This document shows, one piece after another, positions 5,316 through 38,200 of a stretch of 64,000 nucleotides of DNA (its first letter is position 1; the number at the start of each line of letters is the position of its first letter). Where the stretch lies: assembly GCA_024685385.1 (NCBI GenBank), contig JAIKVV010000052.1, forward strand, positions 1-64,000, in the 5' to 3' direction. The notes below the pieces were generated by a model. That model saw nothing but the letters and a program-made list of their open reading frames with translations, had not been told where the DNA came from and did no database searches. The DNA comes from Saccharofermentans sp. (GTDB lineage Bacteria > Bacillota > Clostridia > Saccharofermentanales > Saccharofermentanaceae). Position numbers and translations under genes: made by a program.

Positions 5316-6143
5316 TCAGAACAGATCTACTGCCCCGGCGTTCATGCCGTTGATGACATAGTAGGTCTTGTTGTCCTCAGGCTTAACATAGACATCGACT
5401 GTCTTGATGGATGCATCGACCTTGTTGACCTTGTCAACGATCGTCTTGTAGTCGGTCTCGTTGCCCTTGTACTGGATAACGAACTTGTCGGGTGCCTTGA
5501 TGGCCTTGGGAGCAGCCTTCTTGGCAGCTGCTTTCTTTGCAGCGGGCTTCTTAGCAGCTGCTTTCTTTGCAACGGGCTTAACTGCAGGCTTCTTAGCGGG
5601 AGCCTTCTTCTCTTCCTTCTTTGTTTCAGCCTTTACAGCTGTCTTTGCGGGCTCAGCCTTCTTGACTTCTGCTTTCTTTGCTGCGGGCTTAGCTGCCTTC
5701 TTTGCAGCTGCCTTCTTGGCAGCGGGCTTCTTAGCGGGAGCCTTCTTCTCAGCCTTGGGTGCCTCTGCCTTTACGGGAGCTGCTGCTTTGGTTGCTTCAG
5801 CCTTAACGGGCTCAGCCTTGGGAGCCTCTGCCTTTGCTGCTGCGGGAGCTGCCTTGGGCTCTGTCTTGTCGGCAACCTTCTTTGCTACCTCGTTGACCTT
5901 GGCCTTGGAGCATGCCTTGACCTTGTCCTTCTTCTCGATGGCTTCCTTCTTGATGGTCTCGGTCTTGTCTTCTACCTTGGCCTTTGTCTCCTTGGCAACG
6001 GTCTTGGTCTTCTCGACTGCCTTGCCGGCTGCCTCTCCGACTTTCTTAGCTTCTTCCTTAACCTTCTCGGAAGCCTGTTCTACTTTAACTTCAGCGGTCT
6101 TAACGGCCTCTTTTACTTCTTTCTTGATCTCTTCAACTGCCAT
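5316..6143 (-). CDS. Lys/Ala/Pro-rich protein with DUF6465-like C-terminal domain
   Basis: Long KKAPAKKPAAKKAAAKK low-complexity, histone-H1-like region; compact C-terminus KFVIQYKGNETDYKTIVDKVNKVDASIKTVDVYVKPEDNKTYYVINGMNAGAVDLF. Confidence 0.7.
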   Translation of the reverse strand: MAVEEIKKEVKEAVKTAEVKVEQASEKVKEEAKKVGEAAGKAVEKTKTVAKETKAKVEDKTETIKKEAIEKKDKVKACSKAKVNEVAKKVADKTEPKAAPAAAKAEAPKAEPVKAEATKAAAPVKAEAPKAEKKAPAKKPAAKKAAAKKAAKPAAKKAEVKKAEPAKTAVKAETKKEEKKAPAKKPAVKPVAKKAAAKKPAAKKAAAKKAAPKAIKAPDKFVIQYKGNETDYKTIVDKVNKVDASIKTVDVYVKPEDNKTYYVINGMNAGAVDLF

Positions 6144-6261
6144 AACGGCACCTCCGATCTTTCATTAAATTGTTTTTCTAAACGCACATAATTTATACTT
6201 CTTTGCCTTTACAGTCAAACACAAGCTTTTACTGTATCGGCCGCATTTTTTGTCTATATTA

Positions 6262-7035
6262 TCAAAGAGCGGCATAACCCATGTAAAGCGTTCTCATGTT
6301 CTCTTCGTTCATGATGTATGTATTATCATGCCTTGCGCCTTCAAAGACCTTATTGCCGTCCTTATACACGAACAGCTGATTACGGGAGATCTCCTCCCAG
6401 GGTCCTGTCGTCAGCGGGCGGGTCGAGAAGATCACGGAGCCCTTCTTTTCGAGCTTAAAGAGCGTGCCCTCTTCGTTCTTATGGATATAGAAATATTCGC
6501 CGTCGAAGATCACGAGATTGATCTTATTATGGGGCGACAGTTCCTGCACGATCTCATCCATCAGCCAAAAGCGAATGGCCGGATCTCCGGAGCCGTCGTT
6601 TTCGCGGTAAAGGGAATTCATGCGGTCAACGATATAAAGAAGTATCCTCTCGCTGTCTGTCGTTCCCTTCTGCAGGCACTGGTAGTGCTTGAGTTCTTCT
6701 GATTCGAATATAGTGCCGTTATGCATCAGGGTCCAGTTTCTGCCTGAATCGTCTTTGGCCGTGAAGGGATGGGTGTTGTTGAAGTTGACGTCACCCACCG
6801 TTGCGCGCCTGATGTGGGCCATCATGCGGGAAGATCTGATCTCATCAGTCAGGCGGTGCTTAAGGTAGTAACTGTCCTTGGCTCTCACAGGCTCTTTTTC
6901 GACCGATATGTTGCCTTCGTCGAAAAATGCCAGGCCCCATCCGTTCGGGTGCTCCGAACTGTGATCGAAAAAGTTCTTAAGGAACCAATTAAGCTCGATA
7001 TTATGGTCAGATGTAACTGCGAACAGTTCGCACAT
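6262..7035 (-). CDS. Class II glutamine amidotransferase family protein (YafJ/EgtC-like)
   Basis: N-terminal MCELFAVTS catalytic Cys, NGWGLAFF, HIRRATVGDVNFNNTHPF, LMHNGTIFES motifs. Start placed at MCEL. Confidence 0.8.
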   Translation of the reverse strand: MCELFAVTSDHNIELNWFLKNFFDHSSEHPNGWGLAFFDEGNISVEKEPVRAKDSYYLKHRLTDEIRSSRMMAHIRRATVGDVNFNNTHPFTAKDDSGRNWTLMHNGTIFESEELKHYQCLQKGTTDSERILLYIVDRMNSLYRENDGSGDPAIRFWLMDEIVQELSPHNKINLVIFDGEYFYIHKNEEGTLFKLEKKGSVIFSTRPLTTGPWEEISRNQLFVYKDGNKVFEGARHDNTYIMNEENMRTLYMGYAAL

Positions 7036-8266
7036 GATCAAGATACTCCTTATCTTCTTCGGGAAGTGTCCTGCCTGCAAGTCTTATCAGGTATTCTCCC
7101 CATTCTTCCGCCTTCTTGCCACCATATATTTCTGCATGCAGGCCGTCTCTTTCGATCTTCTCCACCGCTTCCTGAATCTCATCTGCTGTCTTGATGTCTG
7201 AAAGTGCTTCATCCAGCAACTTAAGGTTCTCATCGGAATAGATAAGTCCCTTGATCAGGGCTACATAGCCCAAAGCCTTGTTGATCGGCACTGCGTCAGC
7301 GACCCTGATCTCGATGTATTTCTTCACTCTGAAGTGGAAAAAGCCCATTGACATGAAGTGCTCAATAAGTCTTTTCCTGCGCTCTTCCGTAAGGTCCTCT
7401 TCCCTGAGGATACCTTCATCGAAGAGGTCTTTGGCGCTCTTGCCTGCAACATAAGATGTTTCGCCTTCGTCCGTAAGCAGGATAAGGGGCGTGTTGTAGA
7501 TGACATCAGCCATTTTATCGTAGCCGAACCCTTCTTCCAGCGAATAAGGCACGAAGCCTGTCCTTGAAGGGTCCAGATCGTCCCACTCCTGGATCCTGAG
7601 AAGGTGCTTCTTATCTTCGTGGCCGGGCAGGTAAGAAAGCTCATCCGTCTTGTTTTCCATAAGGATCATGAGGATAGGAGAGATCTTGGATAAGACGCGG
7701 AGCTTTCTTACCATGTCTTCCTCGTTTTTGTAATCGACCGAGATCTGGGCAGAGCCTGATGCTCTCATCATGTATCTGCCGTATTTGCCGGACTCCTGAA
7801 AGTACTTATCCATGTACTCATACCTCTTCTTTGGCGACAGGGGAATATCGTCAGGCGTTATCTCTCCCGTCTCGACTTTTGGGAGATTGCCCGCGGTTAT
7901 CAGACGGTATCCTCTCATTGCGAATATCAGGCTCCAGTTGCTGAAGAATGTATCGTAGACTCTCCTGATGGAAGCCGTATCGTGGAAAGGATTGATGCTG
8001 ATCTCGAACTGGCAGGAAGGCTCAAGGCTTATGGAATGGTCTTCCGTCACATAACCAACCGGATAGCCGTCCATATAGGTAATCTCGGCCTTAAGATATT
8101 TTCCGACATCGTAGATCAGTTTGGATATCTCATGGAATCCGATCTGATCGCCGTTGGAATCGACTACAAAATGCTCGATCTCAAGACCCAGATCCTTCGA
8201 ATCCGTCTCACCGCTCCTAAGATATTCTCTTATCTCATCTCTTATACTCATCTCTTTATCCTCCAT
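7007..8266 (-). CDS. Glutamate-cysteine ligase family protein
   Basis: LGLEIEHFVVD, YMDGYPVGYVTEDHSISLEPSCQFEISINP, RASGSAQISVDY, EIRVADAVP motifs of GCS2-type ligases. Confidence 0.8.
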   Translation of the reverse strand: MEDKEMSIRDEIREYLRSGETDSKDLGLEIEHFVVDSNGDQIGFHEISKLIYDVGKYLKAEITYMDGYPVGYVTEDHSISLEPSCQFEISINPFHDTASIRRVYDTFFSNWSLIFAMRGYRLITAGNLPKVETGEITPDDIPLSPKKRYEYMDKYFQESGKYGRYMMRASGSAQISVDYKNEEDMVRKLRVLSKISPILMILMENKTDELSYLPGHEDKKHLLRIQEWDDLDPSRTGFVPYSLEEGFGYDKMADVIYNTPLILLTDEGETSYVAGKSAKDLFDEGILREEDLTEERRKRLIEHFMSMGFFHFRVKKYIEIRVADAVPINKALGYVALIKGLIYSDENLKLLDEALSDIKTADEIQEAVEKIERDGLHAEIYGGKKAEEWGEYLIRLAGRTLPEEDKEYLDHVRTVRSYI

Positions 8267-34372: not shown

Positions 34373-34558
34373 ATGAAATCTAATGTAAAGATCGAGTTCC
34401 CAGACAACTTTGATCAGCTGATCACAAATGCGGCTATCGAAGCTGTCAAGACTCAGGGCGTGGAAATTGAATGTCCAAAGTGTCAAACTAAGTTCAAAAC
34501 AAAAGGCGAATCATTTCAATGCCCACATTGCAATCAATCATTCCACATAAACTTTTAG
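34373..34558 (+). CDS. Zinc-ribbon protein, plus-strand gene inside the minus-strand late operon
   Basis: CPKCQTKFKTKGESFQCPHCNQSF; AAAGGAG RBS 11 bp before the ATG. Confidence 0.7.
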   Translation: MKSNVKIEFPDNFDQLITNAAIEAVKTQGVEIECPKCQTKFKTKGESFQCPHCNQSFHINF

Positions 34559-34732
34559 CTTTACATCCTTGGAAGCCAGTTCGTTTACCAATGAGCTGGC
34601 TTCATTAAGTATCTCAACCAGTTTATTTGCTTTGTCAATTGTTTCATCAAGTTCTGATTTATCAACTTTGACAGTAACAGGAATTGACTTTATCTGGTCT
34701 CCGCCTACACATACTATTATGTTTTTTTCCAT
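34538..34732 (-). CDS. Small hypothetical phage protein
   Basis: MEKNIIVCVGGDQIKSIPVTVKVDKSELDETIDKANKLVEILNEASSLVNELASKDVKLKVYVE; start placed at second Met. Confidence 0.55.
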   Translation of the reverse strand: MEKNIIVCVGGDQIKSIPVTVKVDKSELDETIDKANKLVEILNEASSLVNELASKDVKLKVYVE

Positions 34733-34850
34733 GTTTACCTCCAATGAAAAAGAGGTCTGGTACCATTTTGATACCGAACCTCTTTGGTTGATTATGTTAA
34801 GTTGTCTGGTCAGTTACTGGTTGAACGATGCACCGTTTTCGGTGGGGTGG

Positions 34851-34991
34851 TCAGGAACTGTGTTCCTTTTCTTGTAAACAAGCAATATACGCATCTTGCT
34901 CCTCAGGAGACATGTTAGAAAACTGATCTATCATTCCTCCCGGTTCATACATAGAATCATCAATAATTAAGTCTTTACTATTCCCAATCAT
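34851..34991 (-). CDS. 46-aa hypothetical protein downstream of MuF gene
   Basis: MIGNSKDLIIDDSMYEPGGMIDQFSNMSPEEQDAYIACLQEKEHSS, AAGGAGATG RBS region; not in supplied track. Confidence 0.55.
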   Translation of the reverse strand: MIGNSKDLIIDDSMYEPGGMIDQFSNMSPEEQDAYIACLQEKEHSS

Positions 34992-35014: not shown

Positions 35015-36697
35015 TTATATCAGTTTTGTCACCTTAAAGCCATAATCTTCGCTTAACTTTTTTAATGCGTATTCCGCAGCTGCAACTTTATCTTGATTTT
35101 GACGAAAATAATCTTTGTAGTGATCTAAAAACTCAGAATCAGGTATTTCCCTTGTTGGCCTTGTATAATGATAAACACTCCCATTATGTCCTGCCACCAT
35201 CCCAGAAGCATTTTTCGTAGACAATAACTCATTCAAATCTGTTAAACTTGGTGGTGAACTACTGGGATGATTATGAATTATTATAATCGGAGACCCAGAT
35301 TCATCAGCTTTTTTCAATTTACCAATGAATTTTACATCTCTTCCAACTCCAAATGGTACATTTTGGTTCGTTACACGCCCGATTTCTTCTCCAACTTTTT
35401 CTCCGCTTGAAAAAACTGCATACATCTCTTCAGTATTCTTCCCATCACGGTTTGTCAATGTCCAAGTTATTCTCGTTTTTATAGCTTCTGATGCTTTTTC
35501 CGAGTCCACAACACTCCTTATTGCTTTATCATACTCCTTACTTTGAATCTTTGGCCAATTTACACCATAATCCCCTTCTGTAGCCTTTCTTGAAGACTCA
35601 GCAACCATTGGTTTTCCATTTCCTGTATACCCCGGCGCTAGCCTCTTCGGATTCTTTCTCAAATACGGGTGCTCGCTCAAGTACTCGTCATGCTTCTGTG
35701 TCCATTCCTTAACCCTGGCATCGTATTTCTGTCGATCTGCCGGATCCACAGCTCCGTCACGGAGTCTCTTGTACTTTCTTATCTCACGTTCCTGTCTCCT
35801 TTGCTCCTGTTCCGCCTTATAGTGTTCCTTGTTTTCAACATCGTTGGGAAGTTCTGCTATCTCCGTGATTCCTTCAATGTACATGAACAGCTGATGCCTG
35901 CAGTTCGGATGAAGGAAGCCAGCTGCCTTTGCTTCAGATACGAGCTTATGCTTCCCGTCAGGCTTACCTTCAGAGTACACGTCATCGATCATGACCTTCC
36001 CCTGCCACTCCTGGCAGATCGGACAGGTCATGCCGATCACATTGGATACGACCAGGTATTCACCCAGTTCGTTCCTGACATCGCCGTTTGCCTGCCTGGT
36101 GACTTCGGAAGAACTCGTCCTCAACGCCATCTCCGCATAAGATGCGATGTTTACACGATTACCGTTCCTGTACTCAACACAGTTAAGACCTGCTGCCAGG
36201 AAGTCTCTGGAAGCTATGTCCACCGCCTGAGGTATCGTATAGCTTCCTGACTGTGCGTAGATATCAGCCTTCCTTAGGAAGTCTGTATATCCGCTGTTCA
36301 TCCTGTTGATCGCTGCATATCGTTTCGTATCGATATTCTGTACTGCCTCATTGATGATGATATCCAGCTTACTGCTGTTCACTCCGAAGAAACCCGGACG
36401 GATCCTCTTTTTTCCGAACAATGCAGCAAAACCTCTGGCATCATCAACACTGCCTTTGTAGGCTTCCTTCAGGAACTCGATAATAGCTGCTTTCGCTCTA
36501 TCGAAGTAACTGTTGGTCAGTCCAGCAACATTCTTACGATATTCTCTTAATCCGGTTATCTGTTCGGCCTGCCACTGGGTCCACTTAAAGCCTTCCATCT
36601 TCTCCCAGTCTTCGTGCCTCTTCATGTTGCGAATTGCCATTGCAAAAAGGTCATCCTCCATAGCCTGGAAGATGTCGCCAATATCTTCCCAGGTCAT
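35015..36697 (-). CDS. MuF-type phage head morphogenesis protein with C-terminal JAB-like domain
   Basis: N-terminal MuF signature GMTCPICQEWQGKVM...HPNCRHQLFMYIEG; C-terminal IIIIHNHPSSSPPSLTDLNEL JAMM-like motif. Confidence 0.8.
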   Translation of the reverse strand: MTWEDIGDIFQAMEDDLFAMAIRNMKRHEDWEKMEGFKWTQWQAEQITGLREYRKNVAGLTNSYFDRAKAAIIEFLKEAYKGSVDDARGFAALFGKKRIRPGFFGVNSSKLDIIINEAVQNIDTKRYAAINRMNSGYTDFLRKADIYAQSGSYTIPQAVDIASRDFLAAGLNCVEYRNGNRVNIASYAEMALRTSSSEVTRQANGDVRNELGEYLVVSNVIGMTCPICQEWQGKVMIDDVYSEGKPDGKHKLVSEAKAAGFLHPNCRHQLFMYIEGITEIAELPNDVENKEHYKAEQEQRRQEREIRKYKRLRDGAVDPADRQKYDARVKEWTQKHDEYLSEHPYLRKNPKRLAPGYTGNGKPMVAESSRKATEGDYGVNWPKIQSKEYDKAIRSVVDSEKASEAIKTRITWTLTNRDGKNTEEMYAVFSSGEKVGEEIGRVTNQNVPFGVGRDVKFIGKLKKADESGSPIIIIHNHPSSSPPSLTDLNELLSTKNASGMVAGHNGSVYHYTRPTREIPDSEFLDHYKDYFRQNQDKVAAAEYALKKLSEDYGFKVTKLI

Positions 36698-36715: not shown

Positions 36716-38200
36716 TTACACTGCGTATTCTTCCGGGGCAGGCGGTTCGATACCACCGTCTGCTATCCCCTTCTCTGCCTTTATCCTCTCGACCTCCGCT
36801 TTCTTCCACTCTTCGTCCTTCGTATCACCCCAGAGTTCCTCGACCTGTGTCTCCGTGCTCATCAGGTTGGAAGATGCGGCCTTACCCAGAGTCTCGACCT
36901 GAGCCTCGAACGACGGGTTCGCATACTCGCCGAACGTCACGGCAACATCCGTGTCCTCGATCCCCATGTCATAGAGGGTCGCATAGACAGCCAGGACATT
37001 CTTTACGAGCTCCGGTAAGACATCGTTAAGTGTATCGATTATGGTATCTCTCGTGTAGAGAGTAGCCTTCTCTTTCTCGCGTTGCGCTTCAGCATTGTCG
37101 AGTTTCTTCACATCGATACCCAACGTGCTGGGACTGATGATCCCCTGTAAGCACATATCCAGGGTATTGATATACGTGGCCAGAAGTCCGTCGTAATCGA
37201 TATGCGGAGCTTCAACCGTGATCGTATCCTTAGAGTTCTCTGACATGGAGCTCTTAAGTGCTATAAATTGATTGTCGAAAGCATTCGGCTCCATAGCCTT
37301 TCCGGTGTTCGGATCTCTCGGGATCATCGTCTCCGGGATATATGTCTTGACTCTTCCGATCCTCAATGCATCCTGCCACTGTGATATGGCTTCATCAAAC
37401 GCATCAAAGGCGTCCGTCTTCCTGTCGAAGATGGAACGGCCACGACCGGGGAACTTGGCTGACTTGTAAAACATCATCGGGAGAGCCATTACAAAATCAT
37501 CTTCCCAGGTGATCGTCTTCAGGCCCTTAAGATCCGGAACACTATCGAGGCTGACCTCGTTCCCGTTTTCATCGAAGAGGTGATACTCGATCATGCCCTT
37601 GGTGTAGTGTTCCTCTAGGTAATAGACCTTACGTGTCGCTTCTACATAGTAACGGGTGTTGAAGATAATCTTGTTTATCCTTCCGCGTTTCTTCTCGAAC
37701 TTAACACGGTCTGCCGGATAGAATTCTATAATGGGATAGTCCGAGATATCCTTATCGAATGATATCTTCCAAGCCCCGTCCCCCTGAACAAGAACATCAC
37801 CGATCGCCTGTGATACCGTATCGACAAAGTTATTGTCTTCACTGATCTCCTGCCAGGTATCGTTCCAGACATCCGGATCCGTTACTTCAATAGCATTAAG
37901 ATCTGTAATGACTATCGATGTCAGCATATCCACCATAAGCCCCGGAAGGCCGCTGTGGATCTTCCTCAGCCTGTTACCTCTTGACGGTACAGCTGCCCAG
38001 AACTTAGCTCTGACCACATCATCATGCACCGTAGTTAAGCTCTTATAGAACTGATCAAGTTCTGAAGCGCTGCCACGATACCAGAGATTGTACTCAAAGC
38101 ACGCATCTTGATGTGACATATCAGCATCGATCGTTATACGCTGATTCTCTGCAGGCTTGATGTCAAGCCACCGCTTGATCATCTCTTTTACTGCGCCCAT
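36716..38200 (-). CDS. Phage portal protein
   Basis: 494 aa between terminase and MuF genes; DISDYPIIEFYPADRVKFEKKRGRINKIIF, QREKEKATLYTRDTIIDTLN. Confidence 0.85.
   Translation of the reverse strand: MGAVKEMIKRWLDIKPAENQRITIDADMSHQDACFEYNLWYRGSASELDQFYKSLTTVHDDVVRAKFWAAVPSRGNRLRKIHSGLPGLMVDMLTSIVITDLNAIEVTDPDVWNDTWQEISEDNNFVDTVSQAIGDVLVQGDGAWKISFDKDISDYPIIEFYPADRVKFEKKRGRINKIIFNTRYYVEATRKVYYLEEHYTKGMIEYHLFDENGNEVSLDSVPDLKGLKTITWEDDFVMALPMMFYKSAKFPGRGRSIFDRKTDAFDAFDEAISQWQDALRIGRVKTYIPETMIPRDPNTGKAMEPNAFDNQFIALKSSMSENSKDTITVEAPHIDYDGLLATYINTLDMCLQGIISPSTLGIDVKKLDNAEAQREKEKATLYTRDTIIDTLNDVLPELVKNVLAVYATLYDMGIEDTDVAVTFGEYANPSFEAQVETLGKAASSNLMSTETQVEELWGDTKDEEWKKAEVERIKAEKGIADGGIEPPAPEEYAV

What the first reader, a model, noticed from the sequence alone, without database searches (positions are those of the whole stretch)
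35015..35620. MuF capsid protein carrying a JAB-like (JAMM) C-terminal effector domain
Seen: after the MuF core (GMTCPICQEWQGK...HPNCRH) the last ~190 residues, in visibly AT-richer DNA, contain IIIIHNHPSSSPPSLTDLNEL (HxH-x-S/P..D motif) with a candidate upstream Glu. Polymorphic MuF toxins and JAB-type toxin domains are described families. Inference: virion-delivered isopeptidase/protease effector or interphage weapon.
Basis: partly seen in the sequence, partly recalled or inferred. Interest (0 to 1): 0.7.

Follow-up and report, generated by a model that had tools for sequence, protein, structure and literature searches.

The report
Phage-head toxin with tiny immunity gene
A dormant virus in a Bacillota-type bacterial genome carries a head protein whose tail end is a swappable JAB-fold metal-enzyme toxin, followed by a previously unnoticed 46-residue gene that very probably neutralises it, so this is a new toxin-immunity pair in a known class of phage-borne weapons.

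Summary
The 560-aa MuF protein (window 35015-36697, minus strand) has a PF06152 core and an AT-rich C-terminal domain (CTD). The CTD is predicted as a JAB/MPN fold (pLDDT 88; listed structural matches are essentially all JAB/MPN proteins). E, H, H and D are invariant in 46 sequences.

79 of 92 related JAB genes have such an ORF, against 32 of 425 control genes. Orphan copies persist where the toxin is wrecked: in S. mitis satellite phages and in a same-genus chromosome whose toxin remnant has lost the E and HxH.

Three same-genus prophages keep a 76-79% identical MuF core but carry unrelated CTDs, one a CdiA_C toxin. This is a polymorphic toxin-immunity cassette. The CTD also occurs on unrelated MuF cores and on an HK97-type portal.

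Shown by computation: fold, conservation, cassette behaviour. Inferred: toxicity, inhibition by the small protein, virion delivery. Peptidase versus nuclease is unresolved. The spacing HxH-x6-S-x2-D (90/90) differs from the x7 of RadC, and no curated model covers the CTD above cut-off. A new variant of a known kind.

The parts
35633..36697 (-). MuF minor head protein core, Phage_min_cap2 (PF06152) over residues 5-340, plus linker up to about residue 355
   Evidence: directly follows the portal gene 36716-38200 (phrog_533)
35015..35632 (-). JAB/JAMM-fold C-terminal toxin domain, MuF residues 356-560 plus stop
   Evidence: fold prediction and structure comparison, family alignment, composition break
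35447..35449 (-). invariant Arg417
35429..35431 (-). invariant Glu423, predicted JAMM catalytic Glu
35267..35275 (-). H475-N-H477, predicted metal ligands
35237..35248 (-). S484-L-T-D487, predicted oxyanion Ser and metal ligand Asp
35186..35188 (-). His504 of the GHNG turn, conserved in at least 90% of the family
34851..34991 (-). 46-aa acidic small ORF, predicted cognate immunity protein, with AAGGAG upstream of its ATG
   Evidence: homologue in G031

Best explanation
This is a MuF-type polymorphic toxin of a temperate phage. The N-terminal MuF domain is a minor head protein that places the polypeptide in the capsid (known for the MuF family, inferred here). The exchangeable C-terminal cassette is a JAB/JAMM-fold, probably zinc-dependent hydrolase (fold and ligand set shown by computation; catalysis inferred). 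It would act in the cytoplasm of the cell that receives the phage DNA, or of the producing cell, unless neutralised. The 46-aa acidic protein encoded directly downstream is the cognate immunity protein (shown: family-wide linkage, shared composition with the toxin cassette, survival as an orphan after toxin loss). It probably binds the basic CTD through a short acidic/hydrophobic segment plus one helix (inferred). Lysogens would be protected and non-immune recipients poisoned. The substrate is unknown; I put a peptidase at about 60% and a nucleic-acid hydrolase at about 40%.
For: JAB/MPN fold: model pLDDT 87.8, pTM 0.83; Foldseek and VIA-align matches dominated by JAB/MPN proteins, P. furiosus JAMM1 Z 8.0, 122 residues, rmsd 3.6. 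Invariant R, E, H, H, P, D in 46 sequences. Small ORF after 79 of 92 JAB genes against 32 of 425 control genes; the window's small ORF matches a profile of the others at E 0.0021, above about 1,800 decoys. Orphan immunity: satellite phages with a 39-aa toxin stub and an intact 52-aa small ORF; chromosomal G031 locus with the toxin lacking E and HxH and an intact 60-aa small ORF. Swapping: same core with other CTDs including CdiA_C; same CTD on unrelated cores and on a portal. CTD and small ORF share low GC, 0.371 and 0.362, against 0.489 in the core. Complete temperate prophage context.
Against: No toxicity, inhibition, metal or substrate data. The structural matches are individually modest (no Foldseek E below 0.001 in PDB; Z at most 8). 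Virion incorporation is assumed from family knowledge. The control test on small ORFs uses related loci, so its p-value is inflated by non-independence. One sister prophage (G033, L148) shows no small ORF of 35 aa or more within 120 nt of its different CTD.
Confidence: 0.8

Rival explanations
1. Nuclease toxin: same delivery and immunity, but the JAB domain cleaves DNA, RNA or nucleotides, as proposed for RadC and for Tox-JAB domains.
For: The nearest sequence profile is RadC. The CTD has pI 8.0 and the small ORF pI 4.05. A sister CTD matches CdiA_C. Published reasoning that RadC and Tox-JAB clades lack the residues lining the ubiquitin-tail tunnel (PMC3482391, PMC5512222).
Against: The complete JAMM peptidase set including Glu and Ser/Thr is kept. 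The top structural hits are peptidases. Two sister CTDs carry HExxH motifs typical of metallopeptidases. No experimental JAB nuclease is known to me.
Confidence: 0.35
2. Structural or maturation protease: the JAB domain cleaves scaffold or head proteins during capsid assembly, and the small ORF is an assembly factor.
For: The gene sits between portal and scaffold; some related actinophage MuF-region genes are annotated capsid maturation protease; no separate maturation protease gene was seen between portal and major head protein.
Against: Same-genus prophages with 76-79% identical cores lack the JAB domain and have unrelated CTDs. The domain occurs as stand-alone chromosomal genes with its small ORF. 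Orphan small ORFs persist without toxin.
Confidence: 0.06
3. Counter-defence: the injected JAB domain removes ubiquitin-like conjugates made by bacterial defence systems (CBASS type II, Bil, Bub), protecting the incoming phage.
For: Structural similarity to Cap3 (Z 6.8) and BubCD (Z 7.6); a JAB in an injected head protein would be well placed.
Against: A dedicated linked small ORF that persists after toxin loss is expected of a toxin, not of an anti-defence protein. Sister CTDs include CdiA_C. A search for Prok-E2_B in the host family found none, but the control also found none, so this is uninformative.
Confidence: 0.08

Closest known systems
MuF polymorphic toxins (Jamet et al. 2017, PMC5576092; Apk2, PMC12226406; Bxa, PMC11699363)
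   Same: MuF core behind the portal gene, variable CTD, small downstream ORF, temperate phage of Bacillota type
   Different: CTD is a JAB domain not named in the main text of those papers; own small immunity family; the CTD also occurs on a portal protein and as stand-alone cassettes
Tox-JAB-1 and Tox-JAB-2/DUF4329 (Zhang et al. 2012, PMC3482391)
   Same: JAB-superfamily toxin domain with E, HxH, S, D and an adjacent immunity gene
   Different: Listed there on T2SS/T6SS/T7SS/TcdB carriers, not MuF, with Imm65 or Imm-NTF2-2; here a 42-70-aa immunity ORF and x6 spacing; only 1 of 42 members touches DUF4329, at E 0.003
RadC-like JAB domain (PF04002)
   Same: Nearest sequence profile (hhalign probability 91, E 1e-6) and HNHPS motif
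   Different: Below the RadC cut-off; x6 instead of x7 before Ser; no RadC N-terminal region; toxin-immunity context
JAMM peptidases PfJAMM1, Rpn11, Cap3, BubCD
   Same: Fold (Z 6.8-8.0) and E/H/H/D ligands
   Different: 10-15% identity; substrate groove not examined; delivered-toxin context instead of intracellular conjugation systems

Membership tests
MuF polymorphic toxin | MuF domain encoded directly after the portal gene | tested here: met
   PF06152 E 2.7e-45; portal phrog_533 immediately upstream
MuF polymorphic toxin | C-terminal domains exchanged on a conserved core | tested here: met
   three same-genus MuF cores 76-79% identical with unrelated CTDs, one CdiA_C
MuF polymorphic toxin | Small immunity ORF directly downstream | tested here: met
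   46-aa ORF; 79/92 relatives vs 32/425 controls
MuF polymorphic toxin | CTD toxic and neutralised by the adjacent protein | not testable with these tools
   needs expression experiments
MuF polymorphic toxin | Protein present in the virion | not testable with these tools
   needs virion proteomics
JAB/MPN+ (JAMM) fold enzyme | JAB/MPN fold | tested here: met
   predicted, not solved
JAB/MPN+ (JAMM) fold enzyme | Metal ligand and catalytic set E, HxH, D | tested here: met
   invariant in 46 sequences
JAB/MPN+ (JAMM) fold enzyme | Canonical spacing HxH-x7-S-x2-D | tested here: not met
   x6 in 90 of 90 relatives with a readable motif; so a JAMM-like variant, not the canonical motif
RadC (PF04002) | Score above the curated cut-off | tested here: not met
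   11.8 bits vs 22.1
Tox-JAB-2 / DUF4329 (PF14220) | Match to the DUF4329 model | tested here: not met
   no match for the window CTD; 1 of 42 members at E 0.0034
Ubiquitin-like deconjugase | Ubiquitin-tail groove and a ubiquitin-like substrate | tested here: inconclusive
   groove not examined (no coordinates available); Prok-E2_B search negative, but so was the control

The most novel reading that the evidence does not exclude
A widespread, undescribed class of phage-carried JAMM-fold metallo-toxins (MuF-fused, portal-fused and stand-alone) that harm bacteria by cleaving a conserved non-ubiquitin target, each held in check by a roughly 50-residue dedicated inhibitor. These would be natural protein inhibitors of JAMM-fold enzymes. 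In one subclade the toxin may also be made free of the head protein from an internal start codon.
Probability: 0.3. Interest if true: 0.78.

Novelty: new variant of a known kind. Interest (0 to 1): 0.58.

Why it matters
It supplies a toxin-immunity pair small enough to test at once: a ~200-aa predicted enzyme and a 46-aa predicted inhibitor. It gives direct evidence that phage-head CTDs are swapped as cassettes within one genus. It shows satellites and a host chromosome keeping only the antidote, which implies real exposure to the toxin. If the small proteins inhibit JAMM-fold enzymes, they are natural leads for inhibitors of a protease family that includes Rpn11 and BRCC36, and they make the open question of what bacterial JAB toxins and RadC act on experimentally approachable.

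Tried and rejected
Single-sequence scans of viral contigs and genome contigs with the CTD gave no relatives; alignments were needed. The plasmid collection had no match. phmmer of the CTD against PDB sequences gave only noise. PADLOC has no model for it. A Prok-E2_B search to judge a ubiquitin-like target was uninformative because the control genomes did not ring either. A second fold, of toxin and small ORF as one chain across the natural in-frame TAA of L105, gave mean pLDDT 88.1 and pTM 0.74, with the small protein mostly confident and the junction (193-198) under 50; coordinates are not returned, so I do not claim that it docks on the active site. Internal translation start of the toxin in the window itself: rejected (upstream pairing -4.8 kcal/mol, reached by 16% of background codons). 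Capsid-maturation protease: considered and rejected because the CTD is exchangeable. Rows that turned out to be host RadC (L014-L017, L030, L031) were excluded from the family.

Full report
OBSERVATION. The finding lies on the minus strand, in the last third of a 560-codon ORF (35015-36697). The first ~340 residues are a phage minor capsid protein of the MuF2 type (PF06152, E 2.7e-45; phrog_581). The C-terminal ~205 residues contain the reported IIIIHNHPSSSPPSLTDLNEL. The composition break is real: GC 0.371 and GC3 0.254 in the CTD, 0.489 and 0.577 in the core. Curated models do not recognise the CTD: RadC (11.8 bits, cut-off 22.1) and Prok-JAB (13.8, cut-off 25) are sub-threshold, and none of 42 family members gives better than E 0.002.

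WHAT THE DOMAIN IS. Relatives came from Anaerostipes phages AC844P1-3 (47% identity over the CTD) and Streptococcus phage MissF (29%), then by profile from IMG/VR and whole genomes. After removing duplicates I count 53 loci of the window's clade and 41 of a sister clade; the two clades are homologous (hhalign probability 99, E 3e-18). In an alignment of 46 sequences six columns are invariant: R417, E423, H475, H477, P483 and D487 in MuF numbering, i.e. the JAMM E/H/H/D set plus an Arg and a Pro. The spacing is HxH-x6-[ST]-x2-D in 90 of 90 relatives in which it could be read, one residue shorter than in host RadC sequences (HNHPSGDPKPSQDD). The AlphaFold model has pLDDT 87.8 and pTM 0.83. Foldseek against PDB ranks BRCC36, RadC and JAMM1 near the top, none with E below 0.001. 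The VIA-align rows are essentially all JAB/MPN-fold proteins, led by P. furiosus JAMM1 at Z 8.0. A profile comparison with RadC aligns E, HNHP, S and D (E 1e-6).

THE MISSED NEIGHBOUR. Twenty-three nt after the MuF stop, behind AAGGAG, starts a 46-aa ORF (34851-34991), pI 4.05, GC 0.362. Nearly every relative has a comparable ORF at its toxin's 3' end. With a fixed rule (40-75 aa, start within -45 to +25 nt, SD-like motif), 79 of 92 JAB genes qualify against 32 of 425 other genes of 150 aa or more in the same loci (Fisher p about 1e-52; loci are not independent). Several of the 13 failures do have a small ORF but no SD match under the rule. Many of the small proteins share a pattern, an acidic/hydrophobic stretch such as DDRVIIPDxIKxM[ST]xEE followed by one helix. 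A profile built from 20 of them finds the window's ORF at E 0.0021 (14.8 bits; best of about 1,800 shuffled decoys 9.8 bits). The sister clade has its own small families (GLDLVDxxPDYTKSxEEN..., IIDPPSPF...).

WHY TOXIN AND IMMUNITY. First, in Streptococcus mitis satellite phages Javan298 and Javan341 the toxin is reduced to its last 39 residues while the adjacent 52-aa small ORF is intact; Javan332 has the same fragment match. Second, in same-genus genome G031, between genes I read as dprA and topA with no phage genes alongside, a CTD remnant lacks residues about 61-121 (including the E and HxH) and is frame-broken, but a 60-aa homologue of the window's small ORF is intact. Third, a search of 113 genomes of the host family with the small ORF alone found only the window and that locus. 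Antidote kept, poison lost, is the expected signature of immunity.

WHY A POLYMORPHIC CASSETTE. Three same-genus prophages have MuF cores 76-79% identical to the window's and diverge completely after ...LRKNPKRLxPG into AT-rich CTDs: one is CdiA_C (PF18451, E 1.1e-6, above cut-off), and two show HExxH motifs (HEFQH, HELGH; read from the sequence, no Pfam hit). Conversely, the JAB CTD appears on a core with no significant similarity to this one (MissF: core E 0.24, CTD E 3e-20), on a Phage_Mu_F MuF, on an HK97-type portal protein, and as stand-alone genes of about 190-230 aa followed by their small ORF, many among ordinary chromosomal genes. The phage itself is temperate: integrase, CI-like repressor, terminase, portal, scaffold, major head and tail genes were identified.

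MECHANISM. Shown by computation: fold, ligand conservation, cassette exchange, linked small ORF, orphan small ORFs. Inferred: metal-dependent hydrolysis, toxicity, neutralisation, and delivery with the phage head as proposed for MuF toxins (PMC5576092). The activity is open. Characterised JAMM enzymes are peptidases, while PMC3482391 and PMC5512222 argue that RadC and toxin JABs may be nucleases. I lean to a peptidase at about 60:40 because the whole peptidase set (E, H, H, S/T, D) is kept.

KNOWN VERSUS NEW. MuF toxins as a class, their small downstream ORFs (89.4% of MuF toxin genes against 25.5% of short MuF genes) and their temperate-phage bias are known (PMC5576092), with Apk2 and Bxa characterised (PMC12226406, PMC11699363). 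JAB toxins are known on other carriers (Tox-JAB-1 and -2, PMC3482391). The only two papers in the held library with 'JAB domain', 'MuF' and 'toxin' together are the two genomic surveys, and the passages read do not put a JAB on MuF. The supplementary tables of Jamet 2017, where 20% of MuF toxins are said to carry a metallopeptidase domain, could not be read, so an earlier listing cannot be excluded. I therefore call it a new variant of a known kind: a JAB clade, an immunity family and carriers that I did not find described.

Noticed in passing
L024, L103, L104, L106-L109, L135 (MuF-fused, QRYGRNK subclade), at the start of the CTD: A Shine-Dalgarno-like stretch followed by ATG, GTG or TTG lies inside the MuF ORF exactly where stand-alone copies of the toxin begin; 8 of 9 are in the strongest 5% of in-frame start-like codons, combined synonymous-codon test p 0.0014 with related sequences. 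It suggests a second, free toxin product. Not present in the window.
   Followed up: partly
L146, L147, L148 (same-genus prophages): The same MuF core carries an HEFQH CTD, an HELGH CTD and a CdiA_C CTD; the first two match no Pfam model.
   Followed up: partly
L034, L035 (Streptococcus satellite phages Javan298, Javan341): Satellites carry an orphan immunity gene against a MissF-like helper-phage toxin, possibly a means of surviving with or against the helper.
   Followed up: partly
L004, about 368 nt after the toxin ORF and downstream of its small ORF: After the portal-JAB fusion and its small ORF comes a second protein with a different GHTHPG...D motif, looking like another JAB-type cassette.
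   Followed up: no
window 34746-34790: A GAGGT...ACCTC hairpin followed by T residues lies after the small ORF; a similar one follows the CdiA_C cassette in L148 (read). It may mark the downstream border of cassette exchange.
   Followed up: no
window 34373-34558 (+): A 61-aa ORF on the opposite strand with a zinc ribbon (Zn_ribbon_4, 31.1 bits, just above cut-off 30.3) lies between MuF and scaffold.
   Followed up: no
window 34538-34744 (-): A second small conserved-looking ORF (MEKNIIVCVGGDQIKSIPVTVKV...) between the immunity ORF and the scaffold gene; no family match.
   Followed up: no
L040 (G584:C9), about 5960-8083: Long runs of short repeats translating as GSPPRVRGI...ITPACAGNT...DHPRVCGEY beside a phage scaffold-like gene and the JAB cassette.
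   Followed up: no
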